Shown: positions 6,781 to 19,325 of the stretch, in pieces
How the letters are laid out: the number at the start of each line of letters is the position of its first letter
How positions within the stretch are numbered: position 1 is the stretch's first letter
Assembly: GCF_003130255.1 (NCBI RefSeq)
Contig: NZ_NRCN01000001.1
Span: forward strand, 862,501 to 926,500
DNA from: Aggregatibacter kilianii
Lineage (GTDB): Bacteria; Pseudomonadota; Gammaproteobacteria; Enterobacterales; Pasteurellaceae
Direction: 5' to 3'
Length of the DNA: 64,000 bases
Translations under genes and position numbers: made by a program
Notes under the pieces: generated by a model
Databases searched by the model: none
Told to the model about the DNA's origin: nothing
The model's input: only the letters and a program-made list of their open reading frames with translations

Positions 6781-6813
6781 ATGTTGTCACTCCTATTATT
6801 TACGGAGGACAAA

Positions 6814-7674
6814 ATGTCTTTAGCCATCGTTTACAGTCGTGCTTCAATGGGCGTGCAGGCGCCTTTAGTGACGATTGAAGTGCATTTAAGTAACGGCAAG
6901 CCTAACTTTACGTTGGTTGGATTGCCGGAAAAAACTGTTAAAGAAGCACAAGATCGGGTTCGTAGTGCATTGCTGAATGCCGAATTCAAATATCCCGCCA
7001 AACGCATTACCGTCAATCTCGCACCGGCTGATTTACCCAAAGAAGGCGGACGTTTTGACTTACCTATTGCTATCGGTATGCTTGCGGCTTCAGGCTATAT
7101 TGATGCGGAAAAATTAAAACAATTTGAATTTATCGGTGAGTTGGCATTAACCGGTCAACTCCGCGCGGTACATGGCGTAATTCCTGCCATTTTGGCTGCC
7201 AAAAAAGCAAAACGAAAATGTATTATCGCTTATGGCAATGCCAATGAGGCCTCATTGGTCTCCGATCAAGAAACGTATTTTGCCCATTCATTGCTTGAAG
7301 TTGTGCAATTTCTCAATAATCAAGGGGAACTGCCTTTAGCAAAGGACATGACGGCTCAAAGTGCGGTGGATTTTAGCGGCGAAAATCAAAAAGATCTCAC
7401 GGATATTATCGGTCAACAACACGCCAAGCGGGCGCTGATTATTGCCGCAGCCGGGCAACATAACTTGTTATTTCTGGGCCCACCCGGCACCGGTAAAACC
7501 ATGCTTGCCAGTCGTTTAACGGGGCTGTTACCGGAAATGACCGACCAAGAGGCCATCGAAACCGCCTCCGTTGCCAGTCTCGTGCAAAATGAACTGAATT
7601 TTCATAATTGGAAACAACGCCCTTTCCGCGCCCCACATCACAGCGCGTCCACGCCGGCTTTAGTGGGAGGCGGC
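6814..7674 (+). pseudogene. comM: comM, 5' portion (interrupted by a Tn7-like transposon)
   Basis: N-terminal 287 codons of ComM (YifB), an AAA+ hexameric helicase that drives branch migration and extends heteroduplex during natural transformation. The N-terminal Lon-protease-like domain (LVGLPEKTVKEAQDRVR; PADLPKEGGRFDLPIA) and Walker A GPPGTGKT (residues 222-229) are intact. The frame then meets the transposon end, which adds one Cys codon and a stop at 7678-7680. The start at 6814 follows ACGGAGG; an in-frame ATG at 6781 lacks a ribosome site. Loss of the C-terminal half, with Walker B and the arginine finger region, should abolish ATPase function. Confidence 0.96.
7670..7674. repeat. Target-site duplication, left copy (GCGGC)
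   Basis: GCGGC immediately precedes the left transposon end and is repeated exactly at 18646-18650 after the right end. Five bases is the duplication length made by Tn7-family transposases. Confidence 0.93.
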
Positions 7675-7718
7675 TGTTAAAATGACAAATAACTGTCAAA
7701 AGATACAAATAATTGTCA
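7675..7718. repeat. Transposon left end with two TnsB-site-like repeats
   Basis: Beyond the terminal TGT, two near-identical direct repeats, ACAAATAACTGTCA (7685-7698) and ACAAATAATTGTCA (7705-7718), are spaced 20 bases apart. The right end, read inward, starts with the related ACAAATAAGTGGCA. Repeats of this kind at Tn7 ends are TnsB binding sites. A weaker third copy may lie near 7752-7765. Confidence 0.75.
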
Positions 7719-7781
7719 CCTTATAATCCAAATCATTTATAATCTACTTGTCTATTTAACTGACTGAAAAGGAAGTGGATT

Positions 7782-9527
7782 ATGTCATATTTCGGCAAGA
7801 ATAATTTAGAGAGAGTTCGCTGGCGTTGTTCACTTAATTTAGAAAAGTATTTTGAAAAACCTCTTCGCGGTTTTTACAATAAAGAACATGAGTACGTTGC
7901 CACTTGGTATGAAAACCGTCTTTCACTAGATAAATCTAAAACACTCGTTGAAGTCACTTTTATCAATTTAACCAATCCTACCTATACAAACAAGAAAACA
8001 GGTGAAGAATGCCAAAGTTTCTTTAAGATTGCTTTACCTATCAACTACCTGCATAAAATTCCATTCGGCAGTATTTGGAAGAATGGTGAGTCGGAATATA
8101 AGTTTAAACTTAAAGAGTTTAAAGTTACCTTTTCAAAGAGTGAGGGATTAACCTATGAGCCACTTTGGGTAAATAAGGAATCTCATCCATTTGAAGCAGA
8201 TAAATACGTTCATTCAGCTTATTTGAAAATATTTAAAAGCGATGGAAATCAGTTACTTGTTATTAAGCCTGAAGGTGATAGTAAGTCTTATATTGTTCAT
8301 CCGTTACACTTCTTTATGGCTCACTATGGTTATTCGAGCGAGTTAAAACGCATCTTGATTACAGACAACTGGAGTAAGGTTGAGAAGAAATTACACCTGA
8401 ATGAATTTTTCAAAGAAAAAGGCGTGTTCGTACCGAATAACCTTTCCACGAAAGACGCGGTGTTTCTTTATCACTTGAAATATGACGCTTACACAAAAAC
8501 AGTCGTAAAAGATATAACGACTAAAATCATCTTTTCTAAAGGTCAAGAAAGACCGCACTATCGCATTCCTTGCTGGCACGACAAACCAATCATGCTTTCA
8601 TTCTATGGTATTGAGTTAGGAAATTCAGTGCTTTGCTGCCAAATTACAGGGATTAGCCAACCACAAGGCGAGCCAATTAACCTTTATTACCATTCTGCAA
8701 TAAAAACAAATAAAGGTGGTAAAGGACAAAAAGACGGAGAACCTCAATACAGAACTCGAAAACAAGAGCGAGAACATGAACTTGAAAAGCTCGATATTGC
8801 ATTAGATAACGTGAATAACCTTGTAACGGCTGATGTTATTGAACATCTGAAATTACTTGGTGAAGAGCGAACAATTAACCGTATTCAGCTTGTTCAAGAA
8901 ACTGAAAAAGGTGGCAAAGTTAAATTCTTAAATTACGATGAACCAGAAAATTACGGTGTAGGTGAGAAACAAGGAAAAACAGGTCTTACAGGCATTGCCA
9001 ACTGTTTCTATGATATTCCAAATACGGATGAAATCAAAGGAAAATCACGCCTTGATACCGTTTGGGAACATGCTAAACGTCTACGCAATGAACAAGGTGC
9101 TAAGGTCTATTGGTACACACCTAAACTAGGATTTAACGAAAACGATAAGTTTACGTTAGTCTCATTAGAAGAAATCCTTGATTCTCTGGAACAATACTAT
9201 CCCATCGCAACGTTAATATTGCGAGTAGATGTGCAACAAAGAACATTCTTTGTACTAAGTTTTCCTGCGAGAAACGAAAAAGAAAACTCAGGCTTTAGTA
9301 GCGTGCTCTACGAACCGCAGAATATACAACAGTTCTTATCAAGCGAAGTAGATATTGAGAGTCGAAGTGAGAACTTATTTAAATTGTTTATTGAAATTAT
9401 ATCAAGTGAAGGCGTAAGTAGCGATTATGTGGATTCTAAGGACGGAAAAATGTCGTTATTTAGACACAAGGAGGCTAAAAAGACAAATAATAATTGGGTT
9501 TGGAACGGGGTTAGAAAATTACTTTAG
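7782..9527 (+). CDS. tnsE: TnsE-like transposition protein
   Basis: A 581-residue protein that I assign by pattern to TnsE, the selector that directs Tn7 to replicating, conjugating DNA through the beta sliding clamp. Support is modest. A segment near residue 173 (HPLHFFMAHYG) sits where Tn7 TnsE has its clamp-contact region. A middle block (LSFYGIELGNSVLC) recalls the TnsE strand before its charged linker, which here is the basic/acidic stretch KQEREHELEKL. The C-terminal part (from about residue 440) resembles the DNA-binding TnsE_C domain and ends with an RH...W..VRKLL pattern. AAGGAAG precedes the start. Unlike in Tn7, the gene lies alone at the left end facing inward. Its last codons and stop fall in a 71-bp segment copied from tnsC. 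A cargo gene of unknown function is the alternative. Confidence 0.6.
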   Translation: MSYFGKNNLERVRWRCSLNLEKYFEKPLRGFYNKEHEYVATWYENRLSLDKSKTLVEVTFINLTNPTYTNKKTGEECQSFFKIALPINYLHKIPFGSIWKNGESEYKFKLKEFKVTFSKSEGLTYEPLWVNKESHPFEADKYVHSAYLKIFKSDGNQLLVIKPEGDSKSYIVHPLHFFMAHYGYSSELKRILITDNWSKVEKKLHLNEFFKEKGVFVPNNLSTKDAVFLYHLKYDAYTKTVVKDITTKIIFSKGQERPHYRIPCWHDKPIMLSFYGIELGNSVLCCQITGISQPQGEPINLYYHSAIKTNKGGKGQKDGEPQYRTRKQEREHELEKLDIALDNVNNLVTADVIEHLKLLGEERTINRIQLVQETEKGGKVKFLNYDEPENYGVGEKQGKTGLTGIANCFYDIPNTDEIKGKSRLDTVWEHAKRLRNEQGAKVYWYTPKLGFNENDKFTLVSLEEILDSLEQYYPIATLILRVDVQQRTFFVLSFPARNEKENSGFSSVLYEPQNIQQFLSSEVDIESRSENLFKLFIEIISSEGVSSDYVDSKDGKMSLFRHKEAKKTNNNWVWNGVRKLL

Positions 9528-9586
9528 ACATTATTGAGCATAACGCATGGGTACAACCAACACAGGGCTTTCGAAAAATTATCAGG
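9516..9586 (+). repeat. 71-bp inverted repeat, copy 1 (tnsC end/tniQ start sequence behind tnsE)
   Basis: This segment equals the minus-strand sequence of 15021-15091 at 70 of 71 positions. It holds the last codons of tnsC (LDIIEHN.WVQPTQGF) and the tniQ start codon (ATG at 9547). The tnsE stop (9525-9527) lies inside it. The two copies are inverted relative to each other and enclose 5,434 bp that contain tniQ, tnsF and all cargo. Confidence 0.95.
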
Positions 9587-9767
9587 AATTGAAATGGAAA
9601 TGAGTGCAGTTTATGCTAGTGCAAAAAGTTCTTTATCTAAACCAAAATTTTTTGGCGCTAAAGCTGTTGTTGATCTAGGAGATTCACAGAAAAATGATGA
9701 TTATCATAAGACTGGATGTATATTGTCTGCTAGATTTGTTGTAAGTTATTTAAAGGAATATTTGTAA
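9587..9767 (+). pseudogene. C-terminal stub of a phosphorylase-superfamily nucleosidase
   Basis: The frame beginning GIEMEMSAVYASAK and ending in LSARFVVSYLKEYL matches the last 60 or so residues of purine-nucleoside-phosphorylase-type nucleosidase domains. It keeps the nucleoside-binding ME pair and the pattern D.GDSQKNDDYH...SARF. Everything N-terminal is missing and is replaced by the tnsC-derived repeat in another reading frame. A TTG-started frame from 9534 crosses the junction but would not make a folded enzyme. Such domains occur as effectors in bacterial immune proteins, so this is probably the remnant of lost cargo. Confidence 0.7.
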
Positions 9768-9918
9768 TGTAATATTTTTAAATATCCTTTTTTAACATAG
9801 AATTACGCTCTTTATCTGCCACTCCAAGAAATGCCTTTCACAATATTGTTTGGAAAGGCTTTGCAGACGGTGTCACTTAGTATTGGATGTTGAACCAAGT
9901 TCTGGCTATTACCCTAAA

Positions 9919-10161
9919 TTACTTAGAGCTATTTTTTTCTAATTTAGAAAAGGTATTTGGGAATTTTTCATGATATTCATCAATTTGAACATGAGAAAGA
10001 TTTTCTGAGCTTTTTACACCCAATTTATCTTTAACATTATCAATAATTCCAATTAATTGTGCTCGGTTATTTTCTGTTTCTCGATATCCATGCTTACTTA
10101 AAAAGTGATTTAATTCCCAATCTTCAGACGTATTTATGTATTTTCCTCTAGGCTTAGACAT
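9919..10161 (-). CDS. Small hypothetical protein, weakly DUF3606-like
   Basis: An 80-residue cytoplasmic protein starting MSKPRGKYINTSEDWELNHFL. The ATG at 10161 follows GAGGAAATCATC; the open frame to 10188 adds nine residues with no ribosome site. The segment YINTSEDWELNHFLSKHGY has the spacing of the short DUF3606 family (pattern IN..ED.E..YW..K.G), but the match is by eye and weak. The rest is charged and helical in character. It is leftward, between the nucleosidase stub and another small gene. Its role is unknown. Confidence 0.5.
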   Translation of the reverse strand: MSKPRGKYINTSEDWELNHFLSKHGYRETENNRAQLIGIIDNVKDKLGVKSSENLSHVQIDEYHEKFPNTFSKLEKNSSK

Positions 10162-10286
10162 GATGATTTCCTCTATAAAAACTAGCACCTAAAAAATGTT
10201 TTAGTTTCATTAAAGCTAGCTAGTGTGTATATTGGGGCTAATAGATAAATATCAAGTTATACTTGACCTAAGTGGAGTTTTAGTTG

Positions 10287-10535
10287 TCATCTAGGGCAGC
10301 CTCTAATTTTATATCCGAAAAATTCTCTATCTATACGGAATGCTTCACGCCACTCACGCAGGTAACGTTTTTCAAGATGATTCCCTTTGATGATTGCGAG
10401 TCGGCGATCAAACCGTCTTAAAATATGTGGAATCGTTGCAAAGGCAATCATTTCATCCTCTTTTTGCTCTTGTTCAAGCCATAGTTTGAATTGTTGTTTA
10501 AGAGACAAAGTAGATTCGTTGTTTGTACTGTTCAT
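10287..10535 (-). CDS. Small hypothetical protein in transposon cargo
   Basis: An 82-residue basic protein (MNSTNNESTLSLKQQFKLWLEQ...) that I do not recognise. The ATG at 10535 has a strong, well-spaced ribosome site (TGGAG, five bases before the ATG), so I prefer it to the frame opening at 10562. The middle is rich in Arg and aromatic residues (HILRRFDRRLAIIKG; REWREAFRIDREFFGY), which could suit nucleic-acid binding. A hairpin (CCAGTT...AACTGG, 10543-10566) lies over its upstream region. It has the same orientation as the gene at 9919-10161. Confidence 0.5.
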   Translation of the reverse strand: MNSTNNESTLSLKQQFKLWLEQEQKEDEMIAFATIPHILRRFDRRLAIIKGNHLEKRYLREWREAFRIDREFFGYKIRGCPR

Positions 10536-10767
10536 ATAAGCTCCAGTTAGTTTGGTTGACAACTGGGCACTACTTTAGCAGTCGAGCGATTTCTGCCGAG
10601 AAATCCATTTCAATTTTTTTCGAGCGAGATCGCAAAAATAACAAATTTTTACATAAAAACCGTATTTTTATGTACAGAGGAATGCCTTTTAGAGTAAAAT
10701 CCCAGTACAATAAATTAACATTCAAGCCATTGACTATGTCGTTATACGCCAACTCTAGGATTACTTT

Positions 10768-11517
10768 ATGACTTTACCAACCAAACTTAAAGCAGAGCCA
10801 TTAATCGATGCTATTTTCGAATGTCGTTTAGCTACAAGAGAAAACATCCCTTTATCTGGGATTTTTCCAGGTATCTTGTTTTCAAGTATAAAGGATGAAG
10901 AAAAATTTTTAGAGAGATTACCACAGTATGATATACCAGAGTTTATTCGAAAAAATGAACCTAACATGAAGTATCTCCCACTAATTAGGGTTAAGTTATC
11001 AGATTACCATGTACTGATTGGTGATAATAGCATTTCCATCTCTTGTATTTTACCATATAAAGGCTGGGGAAGTTTTAAAGAAAAAATAAAATCAATATTA
11101 TCAATACTTATTGATAATAATTTAATTGAAAGCATTGAAAGATTTTCAATTAAATATATTGATTTAATTGAAGCTGATAGTATTGAAGAGCAAGTCAACT
11201 TGGTTGATATATCCCTATCTATAGGAGATGAGAAGTTAGAAAATCAACCATACCAAATTAGAATGGATATTATAAAAAATGGTTTAATGAATATAATTCA
11301 AATTATATCTAATGCAACATATGAAGATTTAAACAAAACAAAGAATGGTGTAATAATTGATATTGATTCGATAAAGATAATTAACAGCACTATTGAACAA
11401 TTAAAAGATAACTTGGAAAATGATTTAGAGGAAATACATCAAACAAGTAAATCTATATTTTTTAGCTGTCTTAAAGAAGAAACAATTAAAAAGACATTAG
11501 GAGCTGAATATGATTAA
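10768..11517 (+). CDS. TIGR04255 family protein (first gene of a three-gene cassette)
   Basis: A 249-residue soluble protein. The opening LKAEPLIDAIFECRL and the closing pattern of a long helix followed by H..SKSIFFSCL and G.EYD are characteristic of TIGR04255, a sporadically distributed bacterial family of unknown function. The region is much more AT rich than the tns genes and uses many AAA, ATA and TTA codons, which suggests recent acquisition. Its stop overlaps the next start by 8 bases (ATGATTAA), so the pair is translationally coupled. Position in transposon cargo and the compact operon make a defence or host-interference role plausible, but this is inference. Confidence 0.72.
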   Translation: MTLPTKLKAEPLIDAIFECRLATRENIPLSGIFPGILFSSIKDEEKFLERLPQYDIPEFIRKNEPNMKYLPLIRVKLSDYHVLIGDNSISISCILPYKGWGSFKEKIKSILSILIDNNLIESIERFSIKYIDLIEADSIEEQVNLVDISLSIGDEKLENQPYQIRMDIIKNGLMNIIQIISNATYEDLNKTKNGVIIDIDSIKIINSTIEQLKDNLENDLEEIHQTSKSIFFSCLKEETIKKTLGAEYD

Positions 11518-11851
11518 TTACAACTCAAAAACGAGCAGCACAAACTCAATTCTTCTTAATATGATTTTGTCTATTTTGATATTAAATAGCACTATTGATT
11601 CTAGTTATGTAGAAAAAGCAAATTCACATTATCAAAGCAAACATAATATATCATCTAGCCCATATTCATCTAAAAGTATAGATGAAACATTTTCAATTAA
11701 CTCTAAATATAAAAAAATAGACCATAATGAAAATGAAATCTTAAAAAATTTGAATGTATTTTTGGCAAGTTTACTTTCTGAGCAAGAATCTCTTGGAGAG
11801 GAGTTCTCCAAAGTGCTATTTGATGATATTTTTGATTTATACCAAAGTTAA
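11510..11851 (+). CDS. Hypothetical small protein, middle gene of the TIGR04255 cassette
   Basis: A 113-residue unrecognised protein whose start overlaps the end of the TIGR04255 gene by 8 bases. The N-terminal 26 residues contain a short hydrophobic stretch (SILLNMILSILILNS), which could be a helix or a weak membrane anchor. The middle is polar and rich in Ser, Asn and Lys, and so likely disordered. The end is acidic (SLGEEFSKVLFDDIFDLYQ). The layout of hydrophobic N-terminus, disordered linker and acidic C-terminal helix would suit an adaptor between its two neighbours, but no function can be assigned. Confidence 0.6.
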   Translation: MINYNSKTSSTNSILLNMILSILILNSTIDSSYVEKANSHYQSKHNISSSPYSSKSIDETFSINSKYKKIDHNENEILKNLNVFLASLLSEQESLGEEFSKVLFDDIFDLYQS

Positions 11852-11859
11852 TTGATTTT

Positions 11860-12486
11860 ATGGATGCAAATATTTTAGATAATATTGTTGAACATATACC
11901 GTTTTATTTGACGCAAGATAAAGATGCTAAAGAGGGATTTGTAAAGAACTTAGAAAATTTCCCAAACAATATTAATTATTACACGTCATATTACCCAAAT
12001 GATGAATTACAAGGTGATGGATGGGAAGGGTTGGATATTGTTGATGTAGTAACTTCAAGAAAGCGCTCTATAAAAGGGATAATACTAAGCAATAGCTGTG
12101 ATATTTCAACAGAAAATAAAAGAGAACTACCTCCAAATATTCTTTTTGCTCCTATTGTAGAGCTAGAAGTATATAGGAATAGATTAATAAAAGCAGGAAT
12201 TGCAGAAAACCAAATAAACTCAAAAATTGAGGCAATTAAAAAGCAAAAAGTAACATCTTTGTTTTATCTTCCTACAATGGGAAACTTTCCTGAATCAATA
12301 GTTATTTTTGATGATGTACGTTCTCTTCCAATGCATTATTTTCAAGGTAAGAAATCATCGCAAATAATTAAAAAGGTGTTTACCCTAAGCCAGTTTGGGT
12401 TTTATTTGTTTCTATTTAAAATCTCTATTCATTTTTGTCGTTTCCATGAAAAAGTATTAAGGGACACCCCTCCAGTACAATCATAA
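11860..12486 (+). CDS. Hypothetical protein with an LSNSCDIS motif, third gene of the TIGR04255 cassette
   Basis: A 208-residue protein, starting 8 bases after the previous stop. It has the segment GIILSNSCDIS followed by PPNILFAPIVEL. A hydrophobic strand, a Ser-Cys-Asp motif and a later API/V strand recur in several uncharacterised bacterial families, but I cannot name the family. Further on are a lysine-rich helix (about residues 115-130) and a hydrophobic aromatic stretch (SQFGFYLFLFKISIHFCRF) near the end. No catalytic motif is evident. A bidirectional terminator follows, so the cassette is a closed three-gene unit. Confidence 0.62.
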   Translation: MDANILDNIVEHIPFYLTQDKDAKEGFVKNLENFPNNINYYTSYYPNDELQGDGWEGLDIVDVVTSRKRSIKGIILSNSCDISTENKRELPPNILFAPIVELEVYRNRLIKAGIAENQINSKIEAIKKQKVTSLFYLPTMGNFPESIVIFDDVRSLPMHYFQGKKSSQIIKKVFTLSQFGFYLFLFKISIHFCRFHEKVLRDTPPVQS

Positions 12487-12493
12487 TAAAAGA

Positions 12494-12527
12494 AAATGTG
12501 ATATTCGATAATGTCACATTTCTTTTT
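12494..12527. terminator. Bidirectional terminator between the cargo cassette and tnsF
   Basis: AAATGTGA (12494-12501) pairs with TCACATTT (12514-12521). T runs follow in both directions (CTTTTTT on the plus strand, TTTTC...TTTT on the minus strand). It separates the rightward cassette from the converging tns operon. Confidence 0.82.
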
Positions 12528-12529
12528 TA

Positions 12530-13945
12530 TCATTTTAATTTACATATAATATCTTGCGGTAGGAAATAATCCTTATTTCCACTATGGTAGTAGGCTACAC
12601 CATTAACCAGTAAGATACTGTCTCGTTTAGGTTTTTTGACCTCTATACTATGCAGACTATATAGCACCACATAAATCAGCTCCATTTGTTCGTTATCGGT
12701 AAGCTTGGACTTTTTGTAGAGTTCAACTAACCGTCGAGCACAATGTTTTTTAAGCTGTTTAGCCTTAATTTGCTGAATCAATTTACAGTCGATTTCAAGT
12801 TCTCGGTGATACTCCGATTTCAAGTGGTTGATAAAACCTGTTATTGCCGCCGTTTGACCTGACTTTTCCACAAGATACTGGTTTAATTGGTCTTGTGTCG
12901 GGTAATCCGTAATCTCGTTAGCGCTGATTAGGTCTATCGCAGGCTGCAAGGCTAATCGTACTGATTTAAGTGAAGTTTTACCCTCATCACATCGCCGTTG
13001 TAATTTCTGATAATAGCTTGCGATACAATGTACTGACTTTTTGAGTTTATTAAAGAGTGCTTGTATGCGTTCTAATTCCGCTAAATCGTCTTTCAAGGCT
13101 TCATCAATGACAACTTGATTCGTATCAAGTAACCAACGCAATATCGTTAAATTGGCACGTAACCCATTTGGTTTAAAGTGTGTTACCAATTCCGCATAAT
13201 CAGGAATTTTCTGCCAAATATCATCACAATCAATGAAGAAGCGCATAAAATCTGAGCTTTTACGCAAAGCAACGCCGATACCACACTTTCGCATATACCA
13301 GAAAATGAATTTCTTATAGGCGGTTTTTATTGCTTTATTGCGAAAGATATGAACATTCAACCGAATCATGTTGAATAACAGGGTTCGTCTTGCACAATCA
13401 GGGCAAACATTACCGTAACCCGATGGCATTTCACCTTTGCATTTCGGGCAAATTGAAAGTAACTTTTCGTCACATTTCTTGCACAACTGTTTCTCTTGGT
13501 TATAAACCTTACGATAACGACGGCAATTCTTACAAGTTGCAAAGGTATATCGACGATAGCACTGCAAACAGATAGATTCGTTCGTTACTGGTGAACGGTA
13601 TCTGTCGCGTGTCATTTTACAACATTCTGAACATTCTATTTCCTCTCGAAAATAACGAATACAAGAACTACATACTGCACCGTAGCGACTTACCATTCCA
13701 ATTTCAAATGTACCCGCTTCTTTACCGCAGCGCACGCAATCCGTTAATTTTTCGCATTCAAGACAAAGTTCACCCTCGCGGTGAATACGCTTGAGTTGTC
13801 CGCACCGCTTACAAGTATTTTTCTTAAACCATTGAGCGTAGCAATTTGCGCAATAATATTCCTCTTGGAATTTGCGTGTGACTTGAGCTTTGCCACAAAT
13901 AGAGCAACTATTTCTCTTTTGAGAGCGAATCTTGGTGATTTTCAT
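12530..13945 (-). CDS. tnsF: TnsF-like comM target selector (zinc ribbons plus inactive tyrosine-recombinase fold)
   Basis: A 471-residue protein in two parts. Residues about 14-190 carry twelve CxxC pairs, enough for six zinc ribbons. The rest resembles a tyrosine recombinase: a helical core-binding region (QDQLNQYLVEKSGQTAAITGFINHL) and then the start of a catalytic fold (MELIYVVLYSLHSIEV). In that fold the GLR-SE arginine motif is replaced, and no HxxR box or nucleophilic Tyr follows. TnsF of Tn6022-like transposons, with its inactivated recombinase domain, is known to direct insertion into comM, exactly where this element lies. The ATG overlaps the tniQ stop (ATGA), so I place the start at 13945. 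It is the last gene of the tnsABC-tniQ-tnsF operon. Confidence 0.8.
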   Translation of the reverse strand: MKITKIRSQKRNSCSICGKAQVTRKFQEEYYCANCYAQWFKKNTCKRCGQLKRIHREGELCLECEKLTDCVRCGKEAGTFEIGMVSRYGAVCSSCIRYFREEIECSECCKMTRDRYRSPVTNESICLQCYRRYTFATCKNCRRYRKVYNQEKQLCKKCDEKLLSICPKCKGEMPSGYGNVCPDCARRTLLFNMIRLNVHIFRNKAIKTAYKKFIFWYMRKCGIGVALRKSSDFMRFFIDCDDIWQKIPDYAELVTHFKPNGLRANLTILRWLLDTNQVVIDEALKDDLAELERIQALFNKLKKSVHCIASYYQKLQRRCDEGKTSLKSVRLALQPAIDLISANEITDYPTQDQLNQYLVEKSGQTAAITGFINHLKSEYHRELEIDCKLIQQIKAKQLKKHCARRLVELYKKSKLTDNEQMELIYVVLYSLHSIEVKKPKRDSILLVNGVAYYHSGNKDYFLPQDIICKLK

Positions 13946-15060
13946 GCTACGATTTTTAACTGTCGTTTTAAGCGTTCCCATTGACGGTTTAGACTTAAAA
14001 CAGAATCGGTTTTAGGTTTATTGGTTACTGTTTTACGGTTTACGGTTTTGCCTTCTGGTGCATATTTAAAGAGTGTATCAAGCTCCGTAGGGTAGTTTTC
14101 AAAGGCAAACGCCTTTTGTGTTATACCGCTTTGTTGAATAGCCTGAATGAAATCCTTACTTGATAAATTTAGGATTTTAATCGCGTTTACCAGTAAATTT
14201 TTACGTTCTTCAACAGGAAGTTGTTCAAACGCAAGGGCGGTTTTGGTTTGGCATATTTCTGCTTGGAAAATGCCACATTCTTCCACAAATCTTGCAAAAG
14301 CGTGAGTAGATTTTGCGAGTGCTACACACCGAACAAAATTGATGAAGGAACGCAATATAGCAAAGTATATTTGTGCATCCACACGTTTTCCAAAACATTC
14401 ACCTGAATTAGTCATAAACACGTTATCAAGCGTTTCCATTGTTGCGATTTCTATTTCATTAAGTGCTGTTGTAGCAACCTGTAATTTCTCACCACATTGA
14501 TGACAGTAATTTAAGTGTCGTTTTTCTGCGGAAAGCAAATGAGGTTGATACAGTTCGCCACAACAAGGGCATTTAGATTCAAGTAAAACTTGATGTTTCG
14601 AACAACCAAAATGCCACGCAAAACGCCATTCATTACGCAAATAAGGTGTTTCCTCTAAGCAACAAGGACAATAAGATTGACCGACACGAAAAGTGCGATT
14701 ACGCGAACCTCTTGAAATCACCCACTTCGCTTGACCTTTAATAAGGGTGCTTTCGCCATTAATCGGTCTCAATACGGAATAAAGCGAATGGTTGGCTAAG
14801 TTTACCTGCTGATTAAACGATAACGCCCTAATATCTTCATAAATCTTCGGTGCAATCGGTTCAAACCCTCTATCTAAATCATATATCCATAGTCGCCACT
14901 TATCCCAATAAAAGCCAGTAAAAATGATAGGCTCTGTGCCACAATCTAATGCAGCACGAATAAGCCATGAACTAATGCTTTCACTTGGGTAAAGCGATGT
15001 TCGGATAACACCTGATTTTACCTGATAATTTTTCGAAAGCCCTGTGTTGGTTGTACCCAT
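13942..15060 (-). CDS. tniQ: TniQ/TnsD family target-selection protein
   Basis: A 372-residue TniQ-family protein. The N-terminal motif YPSESISSWLIRAA is the family signature. Zinc-binding clusters follow: CPCC with H.GCSKH near residues 130-160, then CPCC and CHQC. TniQ/TnsD proteins bind target DNA or a partner selector and recruit TnsC. At 372 residues it is shorter than Tn7 TnsD (508), as expected where another protein, here TnsF, reads the target. The frame opens at 15060 inside tnsC, a 43-base overlap; a later start is possible. Its first codons lie in the 71-bp segment repeated behind tnsE. Confidence 0.9.
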   Translation of the reverse strand: MGTTNTGLSKNYQVKSGVIRTSLYPSESISSWLIRAALDCGTEPIIFTGFYWDKWRLWIYDLDRGFEPIAPKIYEDIRALSFNQQVNLANHSLYSVLRPINGESTLIKGQAKWVISRGSRNRTFRVGQSYCPCCLEETPYLRNEWRFAWHFGCSKHQVLLESKCPCCGELYQPHLLSAEKRHLNYCHQCGEKLQVATTALNEIEIATMETLDNVFMTNSGECFGKRVDAQIYFAILRSFINFVRCVALAKSTHAFARFVEECGIFQAEICQTKTALAFEQLPVEERKNLLVNAIKILNLSSKDFIQAIQQSGITQKAFAFENYPTELDTLFKYAPEGKTVNRKTVTNKPKTDSVLSLNRQWERLKRQLKIVA

Positions 15061-15911
15061 GAGTTATGCTCAATAATGTCTAAAGTAATTTGCTCTGTAC
15101 CTGTATTGATAGCTTCAACAGCACAGGCAGTTAATAAGCGATGTACGTTCCCTAAGTTACCACCTGAAATCGTATGGATTTTGGTTGCTAACTCTGGCGA
15201 TTGAAGATTAGAACATTTCTTCAATGGCAAAATACCTTGAAATTGGAAGAGTAATTTTTGAAAATCCTTATCCAATTTCCACGTTGGCAACTCCGCTACA
15301 TCAAAACGACTGGCGTGCTGCGGATCGGTGTGTAAAACACGGATTGCATCTTTTGTACCTACGCCTACAATCGGAATCTGCAACTCATTACATAGCATCT
15401 TAATCGCATTCATCACTTGGCGTTGTAAACGCGGTGTACCTACAAGCAATGAATGAAATTCGTCAATAATCAGCATTTTCACCTTGTACTCACGGAATAA
15501 GTGAATCGTCTGATAACGCAATTTAGCTACGCTATCCGTTGGTCGATATGGAACATAAAAACGCTCCAGTAACGAGATATAAAGCTCTTTTTCATTTGCA
15601 CTCGGCGGTGCTTCTGCCAAAATAATGGGGCGTATCCCGTCCGACTGGCTGTCCACGAAAGGTATGCCGTACAAATCATAAAAGTGTCGAATAAGCGTAG
15701 TTTTCCCATTGTTAGAATCACCGACTACCAACAAATTGAACATACGAGGGCGTTTCGGCTTATTCATTAAGGAAACTAAATTCTCAATAATTCGATTCGC
15801 AACAGCATAACCTACCCAACGTGGTTTATCTAAAAACTCAATCCGTTCCTGATTGCTTGCAGTCACTAAATGACGGAATTTTTCGTGAACATACTCATAT
15901 TGTTTTTCCAT
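15018..15911 (-). CDS. tnsC: Transposition regulator ATPase TnsC
   Basis: An AAA+ ATPase (297 residues) that links the target selector to the TnsAB transposase and mediates target immunity. Walker A GDSNNGKT is at residues 64-71 and Walker B MLIIDE at 146-151. A later GGNLGNVHRLL segment fits the sensor 2 region. It is short compared with Tn7 TnsC (555) and closer to TniB-like forms. The start shares one base with the tnsB stop (TAATG). Its last 71 bases or so recur inverted at 9516-9586. Confidence 0.93.
   Translation of the reverse strand: MEKQYEYVHEKFRHLVTASNQERIEFLDKPRWVGYAVANRIIENLVSLMNKPKRPRMFNLLVVGDSNNGKTTLIRHFYDLYGIPFVDSQSDGIRPIILAEAPPSANEKELYISLLERFYVPYRPTDSVAKLRYQTIHLFREYKVKMLIIDEFHSLLVGTPRLQRQVMNAIKMLCNELQIPIVGVGTKDAIRVLHTDPQHASRFDVAELPTWKLDKDFQKLLFQFQGILPLKKCSNLQSPELATKIHTISGGNLGNVHRLLTACAVEAINTGTEQITLDIIEHNSWVQPTQGFRKIIR
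15021..15091 (-). repeat. 71-bp inverted repeat, copy 2 (native tnsC/tniQ junction)
   Basis: This is the parental copy, spanning the tnsC 3' end and the tniQ start. It is identical to 9516-9586 on the opposite strand except for one T/G difference in the codon after HN (TCA here, GCA there). Confidence 0.95.
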
Positions 15912-17830
15912 TATTCAATATCTCCAAACGTGAACTCATTATCTAAAAGCAAGTTAGAAGCAGGTGTTTTGACTGTTTCTGTTGGTTTGCTTTCGGGTAA
16001 ACTTGTTGGGATCACTACCTTACTTTTCGCGTGGACTTTCTGCCGTTGAGCCAGTCTCCGAGCTTTCTTCGTCCGCAGTGCAGACTGTTCAACCAATTCA
16101 CGCATTTCAGTTAATGCATCGTGGATCTGCTGCGAGTGAATGAGTTTTTCATCTTTATCTTTCAAGAACTGACGAACCTGTTTGTATTCCCAAATACTCA
16201 TATCAGGTAAAGACTGGTCGGCAAACGGAATCGGGAAATAACATTTCAACTTCGGATCATAGAACCAAATCCTGCCGATATTACGAGGATCTCGACGGAA
16301 TAAAAATTCCTTGCTCTTACCGCTTTCATCGGAATCGTTAATGTACATATTAAGTGCCACATCATAGTAACGTAAACCATCAATCGTTACGCCATTATGC
16401 TGAATAGTCCGTTTTTCACTTGGCAAGAAATCAAGTAACACTGTTTGTTCATCAACAGGCAGTTGCGGATAACCACAACCAACGTGATCTTTATCACCCA
16501 AAATCCCTAATTTCCATTTTTGAACAGGCGACATACCTAAAGCAGAGTGAGTCCGTTTGTGATACACGTTTACAATGTAGTTAACCAGCCATGTTTCAAA
16601 TTCATCTAAGGTCATCACGGCTTCAGCTTCCGATTGATAAGTATCTTTCTCTTTCGTGTTCGAGAATGTTGTACCACTCAAACCGTGAACTTCTTTCATA
16701 AACGTACCGATCACACGCTCAATGTGTCCGCCAAATTCAGGACGGCCAACAGGACGGAACTCAAGGGCTATGCCGTGTGCCTCACAAGATTTTGATAAAT
16801 CAAGCGAGCGGAAATCTGCACCGTTATCAACATGGATTTTATTTGGATAACCAAACACCCCCCATTCACCTTTCACATTATGATCTAGTAATAGGCGTTC
16901 TTTCGGCAAAATGCTGCGAGCAATACACATTGCAACCGATGTTACCGACGGTGCATCAAGTGATAGATAGTATCCAGTAATCATTCGGCTATATACATCC
17001 ATTGCCAATGTTAGGTAAGGTCTGCCAATCGGCTTACGATACTGGTTATCTACAATAATTAAATCAACAGGCGTATGGTCGATTTGAATAACACTTAAAG
17101 GAAAATCTACGTTCGGGAAGCTATTTGGCTTCGGCGTAAATTTATTTTTCGCTTTCTCTTTCTGCCCGCGTTTACGCAATCTTTCTTCTTCTGAAATACG
17201 CAAAATACGTTGTCGGATTGTGCGGCGACTTGGGCTATCAAGCCCTTTTTGACTGGCGACACGCTGCACTTCACGGATCGTCTGTTCAATCGTTGGGCGT
17301 TGTTTATGTAGATAAAACTCATTGATAACCACTGTCACCAACTCATCTTGTTCTTTGCTTAAACGCGAATTACCTTCCGCCCAGCCACGCTTGCGACTTA
17401 CTAAACCAGCGATAGAGCCGAGAGAGTTGTACGCTTGGATCCAACGATATAAACTTCGATCACTCACCCCCACTTCTTTTGCACGTTCTTTTACAGAAGC
17501 AGGACAATGTTGTTCATAATTAAGCAACGGCTTAATCATTTCGTATTTTTCTAACGCTTTTTCCCAGTATTCGTCGCTGATGGCACTTAAATCAACAGAA
17601 ACATCTTCGCGTTCATTCACTTTCAAATTTTCAAGCTGATGAATACTGGCAATCTTACTTTGGCGAGTATGAAGGTTTCGGATCATCACTTGTGCATCTT
17701 CATCTAAATACTCAATCAACTCATATTGTTCGCCATCTTCGCAGTTTACATAAACGTTGCCTTTTTGCAGAATTAGGCGACCACGCTCTAATCGACCGTG
17801 ATAGCGAGGATGAATAAATCCTTTAGTCAT
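15911..17830 (-). CDS. tnsB: DDE transposase TnsB
   Basis: This retroviral-integrase-type transposase cleaves and joins the 3' transposon ends. With the start at 17830 it has 639 residues. The N-terminal helix-turn-helix domain (CPASVKERAKEVGVSDRSLYRW) binds the end repeats. The catalytic triad is visible: D251 in QIDHTPVD, D335 in HVDNGADF and E371 in GGHIERVIG. A C-terminal TnsC-contact tail rich in Lys and Pro follows. I chose the ATG at 17830 because it overlaps the tnsA stop (ATGACTAA); the open frame reaches 17872. tnsC follows with a one-base overlap. Confidence 0.95.
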   Translation of the reverse strand: MTKGFIHPRYHGRLERGRLILQKGNVYVNCEDGEQYELIEYLDEDAQVMIRNLHTRQSKIASIHQLENLKVNEREDVSVDLSAISDEYWEKALEKYEMIKPLLNYEQHCPASVKERAKEVGVSDRSLYRWIQAYNSLGSIAGLVSRKRGWAEGNSRLSKEQDELVTVVINEFYLHKQRPTIEQTIREVQRVASQKGLDSPSRRTIRQRILRISEEERLRKRGQKEKAKNKFTPKPNSFPNVDFPLSVIQIDHTPVDLIIVDNQYRKPIGRPYLTLAMDVYSRMITGYYLSLDAPSVTSVAMCIARSILPKERLLLDHNVKGEWGVFGYPNKIHVDNGADFRSLDLSKSCEAHGIALEFRPVGRPEFGGHIERVIGTFMKEVHGLSGTTFSNTKEKDTYQSEAEAVMTLDEFETWLVNYIVNVYHKRTHSALGMSPVQKWKLGILGDKDHVGCGYPQLPVDEQTVLLDFLPSEKRTIQHNGVTIDGLRYYDVALNMYINDSDESGKSKEFLFRRDPRNIGRIWFYDPKLKCYFPIPFADQSLPDMSIWEYKQVRQFLKDKDEKLIHSQQIHDALTEMRELVEQSALRTKKARRLAQRQKVHAKSKVVIPTSLPESKPTETVKTPASNLLLDNEFTFGDIE

Positions 17831-18485
17831 TTGAATACCCCCAAACTTCGGTAAATTCAGATAATGGTTCAAACCAGTTGCAAGTCAGTTGCTTGGTTAC
17901 TAATAAGTGATAGATAATTTGCAATCCTTTGGTTCGATAAAGTGAACCTGTAAATAATCGAGAGAGTAGAAAATCTATCGTGGTACTGCCGTGTAACTTA
18001 ACTTGAGTAAGTATTGCTTCAATATCTTCAGGATCACACTGTAATCGTTTGTAACGTTGAACCGCGTTAATGTTGAATAACGCAAGGTGACGAACTCTAT
18101 CTTCATCATAAATATGGAAGATGCACTCGTTCTTTTTGCTGAATGCCATTGCCGCTTTCCATTTTTCTTTCCAATCACGCCAATGTTCCTGCCATTTTGA
18201 TTTCGGTTTTACTTCAATCAAAAGCGATGGTCGTCCATCATTGAAACGAATAAAAAAATCAGGCGTGTAAGGATAAGTCATTCTATTTTTCACAAACAGA
18301 ATGCGAACAGGTTGAGAAATGATTTCCTCTACCGCAGGCATATAAGTAAAATAAAGCAAGAGATCTCGCTCAAGCGTAGATTCGTAAGGAATGCTTACTC
18401 CATCTTTAAAAGGGAGTAAACCTGATACGCTAAGGCGTGTTGGTTTGATCTTACGAACCTGTTGGAAAGTGGATTCTGTTTTCAT
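17823..18485 (-). CDS. tnsA: Transposon endonuclease TnsA
   Basis: This restriction-endonuclease-fold nuclease cuts the 5' transposon strands, so that with TnsB the element moves by cut-and-paste. In the 220-residue protein, ESTLERD contributes E39 (or E35), YTPDFF contributes D76 and LLIEVKPKS contributes E91 and K93, the expected E-D-(E)VK set. A C-terminal winged-helix-like region (about 150-220) would contact TnsC. It is the first gene of the operon. Its promoter region lies within the right-end TnsB-site array, suggesting autoregulation as in Tn7. Confidence 0.93.
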   Translation of the reverse strand: MKTESTFQQVRKIKPTRLSVSGLLPFKDGVSIPYESTLERDLLLYFTYMPAVEEIISQPVRILFVKNRMTYPYTPDFFIRFNDGRPSLLIEVKPKSKWQEHWRDWKEKWKAAMAFSKKNECIFHIYDEDRVRHLALFNINAVQRYKRLQCDPEDIEAILTQVKLHGSTTIDFLLSRLFTGSLYRTKGLQIIYHLLVTKQLTCNWFEPLSEFTEVWGYSND

Positions 18486-18490
18486 GAATA

Positions 18491-18645
18491 ATTTGACCTT
18501 TATTGGTATCTTTTAATATATTTTGACAGCTATTTATAGCTTTTATGTCATTAAATAGTATCTTCTAAGGGTAAAAAAATAGGCTAAAGCCTTATTCTAT
18601 CGTTCTAAGTTTTGCCGATTATGCCACTTATTTGTAACTTTGACA
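18491..18645. repeat. Transposon right end with TnsB-site-like repeats
   Basis: Read inward on the minus strand, the end begins TGTCAAAGTTACAAATAAG. Two more related motifs follow before tnsA: CTATAAATAGCTGTCAAAA (about 18537-18519) and GATACCAATAAAGGTCAAA (about 18510-18492). A terminator-like hairpin (AGGCT..AGCCT followed by seven T on the minus strand, 18575-18592) lies between them and could shield tnsA from read-through. Confidence 0.7.
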
Positions 18646-18650
18646 GCGGC
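18646..18650. repeat. Target-site duplication, right copy (GCGGC)
   Basis: Exact repeat of 7670-7674, lying between the right transposon end and the resumed comM reading frame. Confidence 0.93.
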
Positions 18651-19325
18651 ACAATTCCAAAACCCGGCGAAATTTCTCTCGCACATAATGGTGTGCTTTT
18701 TTTAGACGAACTGCCTGAATTTGAACGTAAGGTGCTGGATGCTTTACGCCAACCGTTAGAAAGTGGCGAAATCATTATTTCGCGTGCCAATGCCAAAATT
18801 CAGTTTCCGGCAAGGTTTCAGCTTATTGCGGCGATGAACCCAAGCCCAACGGGGCATTATCAAGGGACACACAATCGTACGTCGCCGCAACAAATCATGC
18901 GGTATTTAAATCGTCTCTCCGGCCCATTTCTGGATCGTTTTGATTTATCCATTGAAGTGCCTTTGTTGCCACAAGGCAGTTTGCAAAATAATACGGAGCG
19001 TGGCGAACCTAGCGCAATCGTCCGTGAAAAAGTGTTAAAAACCCGCAACATCCAATTAGAACGTGCAGGCAAAATAAACGCCCATTTAACCGGTAAAGAA
19101 ATTGAACGGGATTGTAAACTGGAAAGCAAAGACGCATTATTTCTCGAAAATGCCCTGACCAAACTAGGGCTTTCCGTACGCGCATATCACCGCATACTTA
19201 AAGTCTCCCGCACCATCGCGGATTTGGAGGAGGAGCCGCAAATCACCCAACGACATTTAGCGGAAGCATTGGGATATCGGGCAATGGATCGATTGTTGCA
19301 GAGGTTATCGAAAGAATCCGGTTAA
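18651..19325 (+). pseudogene. comM: comM, 3' portion
   Basis: The remaining 224 codons of ComM, resuming at TIPKPGEISLAHNG with no lost base relative to the left part. It carries Walker B (VLFLDELPEF, residues 306-307 of the joined protein), the MNPSPTGH sensor region, and the C-terminal Mg-chelatase-like domain ending in GYRAMDRLL. An ATG inside the transposon end (18612) opens this frame, but no ribosome site is evident and the product would lack the P-loop. The joined protein would be 511 residues, the normal ComM length. Confidence 0.95.

What the first reader, a model, noticed from the sequence alone, without database searches (positions are those of the whole stretch)
7670..18650. A complete Tn7-like transposon resolved to the base inside comM
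Both ends (TGT...ACA, 19 of 24 terminal bases matching), a GCGGC duplication and exact restoration of the comM frame (VGGG|TIPKPGE) are visible. All five core genes have intact frames and catalytic motifs, so the element may still be able to move.
Basis: partly seen in the sequence, partly recalled or inferred. Interest (0 to 1): 0.85.

Follow-up and report, generated by a model that had tools for sequence, protein, structure and literature searches.

The report
Complete Tn6022-like transposon inside comM
A complete, apparently working jumping element of a known kind has inserted at its preferred spot in the DNA-uptake gene comM of an Aggregatibacter bacterium; the element type is known, but its sister copies and its small phage-associated cargo are informative.

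Summary
The element is 7675-18645 (10,971 bp), flanked by GCGGC; its ends match at 19 of 24 positions, and joining the comM flanks restores one open frame. It is a Tn6022-family Tn7-like transposon: tnsA, tnsB, tnsC, short tniQ and tnsF (the published comM-targeting selector), plus a remote TnsE-like gene on the other strand. TnsF is about 30% identical to an Acinetobacter homologue, and its model ranks tyrosine recombinases first. TnsB occurs in 16 of 140 Pasteurellaceae genomes; in 12 the right end sits at the same comM base. In 7 of 8 elements with both comM junctions intact the 5-bp copies agree, though their letters differ between hosts. Sister elements also sit outside comM with perfect duplications (four sites, three genomes), so this lineage moves. 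This is a new member of a known kind. Less expected: three comM copies show comM deletions ending exactly at the left terminus, and the cargo is a gene module shared with Pseudomonas phages, there beside a portal gene or a CI repressor: a candidate antiviral module (inference).

The parts
7670..7674 (.). 5-bp target-site duplication GCGGC, left copy (comM Gly codons)
   Evidence: equals right copy
7675..18645 (.). Tn6022-family Tn7-like transposon, 10,971 bp
7675..7718 (+). Left end TGTTAAA... with two TnsB-like repeats (7682-7698, 7702-7718)
7782..9527 (+). TnsE-like protein, 581 aa (remote similarity)
   Evidence: hhalign with 8 TnsE proteins E 0.0017 but probability only 15%; control pairs E 0.15 and 0.93; no Pfam TnsE_C match
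9513..9586 (+). Scar: copy of the 3' end of tnsC (inverse of 15021-15094, 97%) fused to the tnsE-like 3' end
   Evidence: not seen behind tnsE in the ten relatives read
9919..10188 (-). Small ORF, 89 aa, also in the Actinobacillus capsulatus element (83%)
10287..10562 (-). Small ORF, 91 aa, just downstream of tnsF in 12 of the 13 related loci that have tnsF (16 loci examined); unknown function
   Evidence: phrog_7561
10768..11517 (+). Cargo gene 1, TIGR04255 family, 249 aa
   Evidence: E 7e-31; phages
11510..11851 (+). Cargo gene 2, 113 aa
   Evidence: weak similarity
11860..12486 (+). Cargo gene 3, 208 aa, phrog_4575
12530..13981 (-). tnsF (tniE): zinc-ribbon N-terminus, tyrosine-recombinase-like C-terminus, 483 aa; inferred comM selector
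13942..15060 (-). tniQ, 372 aa
   Evidence: PF06527 E 1e-17
15018..15911 (-). tnsC/tniB AAA+ ATPase, 297 aa
   Evidence: PF05621 E 8e-70
15911..17872 (-). tnsB DDE transposase, 653 aa
   Evidence: rve, Mu-transpos_C; 16 of 140 family genomes
17823..18485 (-). tnsA endonuclease, 220 aa
   Evidence: PF08722 E 1.5e-15
18494..18645 (-). Right end with four TnsB-like repeats
18646..18650 (.). Target-site duplication GCGGC, right copy
6781..7674 (+). comM 5' part (ends in VGGG)
18651..19325 (+). comM 3' part (TIPKPGE...; Walker B LFLDE begins 45 bp after the duplication)

Best explanation
This is a complete Tn6022-family Tn7-like transposon that homes to comM. Inferred working, by homology to the Acinetobacter johnsonii Tn6022 system (PMC10293859): TnsF binds the comM segment around the Walker B codons, TniQ bridges TnsF to TnsC, and TnsA+TnsB cut the element out and join it 45 bp upstream of Walker B with the right end towards the 3' part of comM, duplicating 5 bp. 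comM is split, which should lower natural transformation and so the chance that the element is removed by recombination (known for comM, inferred here). A TnsE-like protein probably serves a second, non-comM route. Shown here: anatomy, exact boundaries, the duplication, the shared right boundary in relatives, and other insertions of close relatives. Inferred: the protein functions and present activity.
Confidence: 0.93

Rival explanations
1. The element is an immobile relic: inserted long ago, vertically inherited, and now fixed in comM.
For: Single copy in the genome; a rearrangement scar (copy of the tnsC end) sits behind the tnsE-like gene.
Against: Perfect duplication, intact frames and motifs; absent from the closest sister's comM; TnsB 99% identical in A. 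segnis and 96% in Pasteurella bettyae while ComM is 93% and 79%; a sister element has three sites in one genome.
Confidence: 0.12
2. It inserts by another logic (random TnsE-type insertion, or a CAST) and comM is coincidental.
For: At least five insertions of relatives lie outside comM, four of them with matching duplications.
Against: 12 of 12 comM-borne elements read use the same base and orientation for the right end; TnsF is present; no Cas families among the ten element ORFs scanned.
Confidence: 0.03
3. For the left-flank comM deletions in sister elements: two separate insertions plus homologous recombination between copies, rather than replicative intramolecular transposition.
For: G015 and G020 carry more than one copy.
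Against: Needs a second insertion within about 45-480 bp of the first, against the target immunity expected of Tn7 relatives (recalled, not tested). G108 showed only one right end.
Confidence: 0.35

Closest known systems
Tn6022 / AbaR backbone (Acinetobacter; AjTn6022 in PMC10293859)
   Same: tnsA-tnsB-tnsC-short tniQ-tnsF operon, tnsE on the opposite strand, comM target, 5-bp duplication; the AbaR duplication ACCGC is the reverse complement of GCGGT, the same codon pattern as here
   Different: TnsF only about 30% identical; different small cargo, no resistance gene among the cargo proteins scanned; TnsE-like protein very divergent
comM-borne mobile elements of Aggregatibacter actinomycetemcomitans and Mannheimia (PMC4774983, passages; PMC1626085, passages, reports a 17-kb insertion in M. 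succiniciproducens comM)
   Same: Same gene, same bacterial family; the A. actinomycetemcomitans elements fetched here have TnsB 97% identical
   Different: The passages I saw describe the interruptions without target selector, duplications or the left-flank deletions
Tn7
   Same: TnsA/TnsB/TnsC chemistry, TGT...ACA ends, 5-bp duplication, probable TnsE (Tn7 features recalled)
   Different: No TnsD/glmS site; short TniQ plus TnsF instead
Tsy (PMC10293859, passages)
   Same: Uses a TnsF homologue to enter comM

Membership tests
Tn7-like transposons | TnsA + TnsB + TnsC genes with intact catalytic motifs | tested here: met
Tn7-like transposons | TGT...ACA ends with several TnsB-type repeats, 5-bp duplication | tested here: met
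Tn6022 family | short TniQ followed by TnsF (zinc ribbons plus tyrosine-recombinase-like part) | tested here: met
   TniQ 372 aa, TnsF 483 aa; (fold support moderate)
Tn6022 family | TnsF tyrosine-recombinase domain lacks the catalytic chamber | tested here: inconclusive
   XerH alignment stops at residue 258 of a 345-residue chain, rmsd 9.2; active-site residues not mapped
Tn6022 family | insertion in comM near Walker B | tested here: met
   45 bp upstream of LFLDE
Tn6022 family | tnsE on the opposite strand | tested here: inconclusive
   Gene in the right place and orientation; profile comparison E 0.0017, probability 15%, against controls E 0.15 and 0.93, but no Pfam TnsE_C and no decisive fold match
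Tn6022 family | TnsF required for transposition into comM | not testable with these tools
   needs an assay
Canonical Tn7 (attTn7) | TnsD and insertion downstream of glmS | tested here: not met
   comM insertion; only a short TniQ
CRISPR-associated transposon | Cas effector genes | tested here: not met
   no Cas family in the ten ORFs scanned
Tsy | own tyrosine recombinase, no Tn7 genes | tested here: not met
   Tn7 genes present

The most novel reading that the evidence does not exclude
Two things beyond a new family member. (a) The cargo, TIGR04255 protein + small protein + 208-aa protein, is an undescribed antiviral module that moves between accessory hotspots of P2-like and other temperate phages and at least this Tn7-family element; the probability given is for this. 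(b) After landing, the transposase can make left-flank deletions in comM that end exactly at its terminus (3 of 11 comM-borne elements with both junctions read, all on the left), turning a revertible insertion into a permanent loss of comM by intramolecular, replicative transposition; my separate estimate for (b) is 0.5.
Probability: 0.5. Interest if true: 0.55.

Novelty: new member of a known kind. Interest (0 to 1): 0.4.

Why it matters
It ties the TnsF/comM mechanism worked out in Acinetobacter to a lineage that has spread across several genera of Pasteurellaceae, a family with natural competence, with empty sites, intact insertions, insertions with comM deletions and non-comM insertions side by side. 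That makes the idea that mobile elements profit from disabling transformation testable there. The cargo points to a candidate antiviral module that the defence-system library used here lacks.

Tried and rejected

TnsF by PDB sequence profile gave only zinc-finger-like and other chains with E of 0.03 or more. The hhalign is not used as evidence, because its target was also a row of the query profile.

The 74-nt inverted repeat was considered as a functional site and rejected: it is a tnsC 3'-end fragment joined at a short shared sequence, not present behind tnsE in the ten relatives read.

A split comM without a TnsB match in genus g14 (G046, G047) was considered as an excision footprint and rejected: both share a +1 frameshift about 15 bp downstream of the duplication site, not at it.

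PADLOC found no family for the cargo or its phage counterparts; its only hit, KwaA E 0.012 to the 89-aa ORF, was judged chance. No paper in the library holds 'TIGR04255'. Text searches inside PMC8649781, PMC7253598 and PMC3139650 gave nothing used here. No tree was built.

Rows dropped: in going to I left out L035 (G108 TnsF, stop in the range) and, at the same time, the Methylobacter TnsF row. L036 (G129) TnsB has a stop in the range and that alignment was abandoned. G129 (TnsB 41%) has intact comM; its insertion site was not resolved. G011 and G026 hold remnants; G012 and G051 have a left end and a tnsE-like gene but no TnsB match and were not examined further.
Full report
OBSERVATION. The element runs from 7675 to 18645 (10,971 bp) and is bracketed by GCGGC. 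The first 24 bases of the two ends match at 19 positions; 3 of 2,000,000 random pairs of window 24-mers did as well. A 17-base motif like GATACAAATAATTGTCA recurs near both ends, twice on the left and four times on the right at 12 or more matches of 17; eight hits of 12 or 13 of 17 also occur inside the element, so single weak sites mean little. Removing the element in silico gives a comM frame of 522 codons...ALVGGGTIPKPGE.... GC is 36% in the element, 28% in the cargo module and 42% in the window.

TNSE-LIKE GENE. The 581-aa gene at the left end has matches, some partial, in 17 of 140 family genomes, and a relative lies on a Methylobacter plasmid with tnsA, tnsB, tnsC and a TnsF match. Against a profile of eight TnsE proteins hhalign gives E 0.0017 over 268 columns running nearly to both C-termini, but a probability of only 15%; two control profile pairs gave E 0.15 and 0.93, probability 0.4% or less. 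Against a single TnsE the result was not better than a control, Pfam TnsE_C does not match and the fold search was undecided. I call it TnsE-like with moderate confidence, mainly because Tn6022 elements are described as carrying tnsE on the opposite strand.

RELATIVES AND EMPTY SITES. TnsB (E<=1e-20) is in 16 of 140 Pasteurellaceae genomes, the window's included. Twelve have the element in comM, and in all twelve the right end abuts the same base of comM. For eight, both comM junctions show the expected layout: in seven the two 5-mers are identical (GCGGC, GCGGT, GTGGT, GTGGC, GTGGT, GCGGC, GAGGC; the last from two copies of one genome), following the host's own glycine codons; in Pasteurella bettyae they differ. 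Three have the left end deep inside comM (next paragraph); in one (G014) the left junction was not found. Of the other four genomes, Mannheimia G094 has an element outside comM with duplication GGTAT in a gene with Sel1-like repeats (naming by eye), G129 has a distant relative with comM intact, and G011 and G026 hold remnants. The search with the comM 5' part matched 137 of 140 genomes. Among the 30 loci it returned, 27 have an uninterrupted comM through this site, including four same-genus sisters. The closest sister, G017, reads GTGGC where the window has GCGGC, a synonymous difference; G018 reads GCGGC. TnsB identity to the window is 96% (P. bettyae), 95% (G094) and 92% (Glaesserella), whereas ComM identity is 79%, 74% and 75%: the element has crossed genera.

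MOBILITY AND LEFT-FLANK DELETIONS. A. segnis HK_296 (G020) has three left and three right junction contigs: two pairs share ATTGA and CTTCA, the third pair is comM. A. actinomycetemcomitans HK_961 (G015) has two: one pair shares ATAAT, the other is comM. In G020 the pairs were assigned by these shared 5-mers; the two ATTGA flanks also carry the two parts of one cytochrome-c-peroxidase-like frame (naming by eye). In G015, G020 and G108 the comM copy keeps its right boundary but the left end follows comM codon ~126, ~231 or ~269 directly, the terminal TGT being intact. Deletions stopping at the terminal base point to transposase action. Replicative intramolecular transposition would do this, and AjTn6022 gave 39% cointegrates in E. 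coli; recombination between two insertions is the rival. Three cases, all on the left, is not significant for a side preference (1 in 4 by chance for all on one side). Literature searches listed no paper that I recognised as describing this; they are not exhaustive.

CARGO. Between tnsF and the 91-aa gene, which follows tnsF closely in 12 of the 13 related loci that have tnsF (16 loci examined), the window has three genes in opposite orientation: TIGR04255 family (249 aa), 113 aa, 208 aa. Gene 1 is in none of the other 139 family genomes at E<=1e-5 and gene 3 in none of the other 294 genomes sampled from the order at E<=1e-10. Genes 1 and 3 occur in the same four Pseudomonas phage records, two of which are the same phage; gene 1 also occurs in one Phocaeicola plasmid. 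In phage Dobby (Peduoviridae, the P2 family) the set ends at the portal gene and in VW-6S it follows the CI repressor. Gene 2 of Dobby is only weakly similar (28 residues, E 2e-05). Of 17 IMG/VR contigs with gene 1, 11 also have gene 3 downstream with 271-458 nt between them, room for a small gene. Five of the 17 have a P2-like portal gene nearby, but three of these lack a gene-3 match and the other two are practically Dobby; five have a CI-like match upstream, three of them weak, and all five have gene 3. Rousset et al. (PMC9122126, passages) describe the region next to the P2 portal gene as an anti-phage hotspot and another between cI and integrase of a P2-related Vibrio phage. Hence my inference that the module is antiviral; PADLOC does not know it.

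WHAT IS KNOWN. Faure et al. 2023 (PMC10293859: outline, passages, sections 14 and 31) showed that TnsF directs AjTn6022 to comM, that TnsA, B, C, TniQ and TnsF are all needed, and that the recognised segment overlaps Walker B. Croucher et al. 2016 (PMC4774983, passages) report comM insertions in A. actinomycetemcomitans, Mannheimia, Acinetobacter, Francisella and Pseudomonas. Redfield et al. 2006 (PMC1626085, passages) report a 17-kb insertion in M. succiniciproducens comM. AbaR islands show the duplication ACCGC (PMC3691203 and PMC6496155, passages) and, for a second copy, TCTTA (PMC6496155). PMC11472951 (passages) says that loss of comM lowers transformation by two orders of magnitude in its assay. 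Jorth and Whiteley 2012, cited there for A. actinomycetemcomitans, was not held. The finding is therefore a well resolved new member of a known kind.

Noticed in passing
window 10768-12486; L115 1117-2786; L116 4001-5644: Three-gene module (TIGR04255 + small + 208 aa) shared in order with Pseudomonas phages, beside the portal gene or the CI repressor; candidate antiviral module.
   Followed up: partly
L075, L161, L035: comM deletions that end exactly at the element's left terminus in three sister elements.
   Followed up: partly
window 9513-9586 and 15021-15094: 74-nt inverse copy of the tnsC 3' end fused to the tnsE-like 3' end, seen only in this element: trace of cargo rearrangement, perhaps with a second element.
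   Followed up: yes
L073, L085, L031, L089 (Rodentibacter caecimuris, G117): Two nearly identical element copies; the comM halves lie about 1.67 Mb apart, each next to a different copy. The non-comM flank of one copy matches hsdR, that of the other matched no family, and their 5-mers do not agree. Looks like a large inversion between copies.
   Followed up: partly
L076, L077 (G046, G047): comM in another genus broken by a shared +1 frameshift just downstream of the insertion site, without a TnsB match in the genome.
   Followed up: yes
window 10287-10562: 91-aa gene conserved behind tnsF in related elements, with good matches also in four genomes (G058, G068, G074, G104) that lack a TnsB match; unknown function (phrog_7561).
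   Followed up: partly
L027, L029, L031, L033: TniQ is only about 70% identical in elements whose TnsC is 86-95% identical, suggesting mosaic exchange or fast change of tniQ.
   Followed up: no
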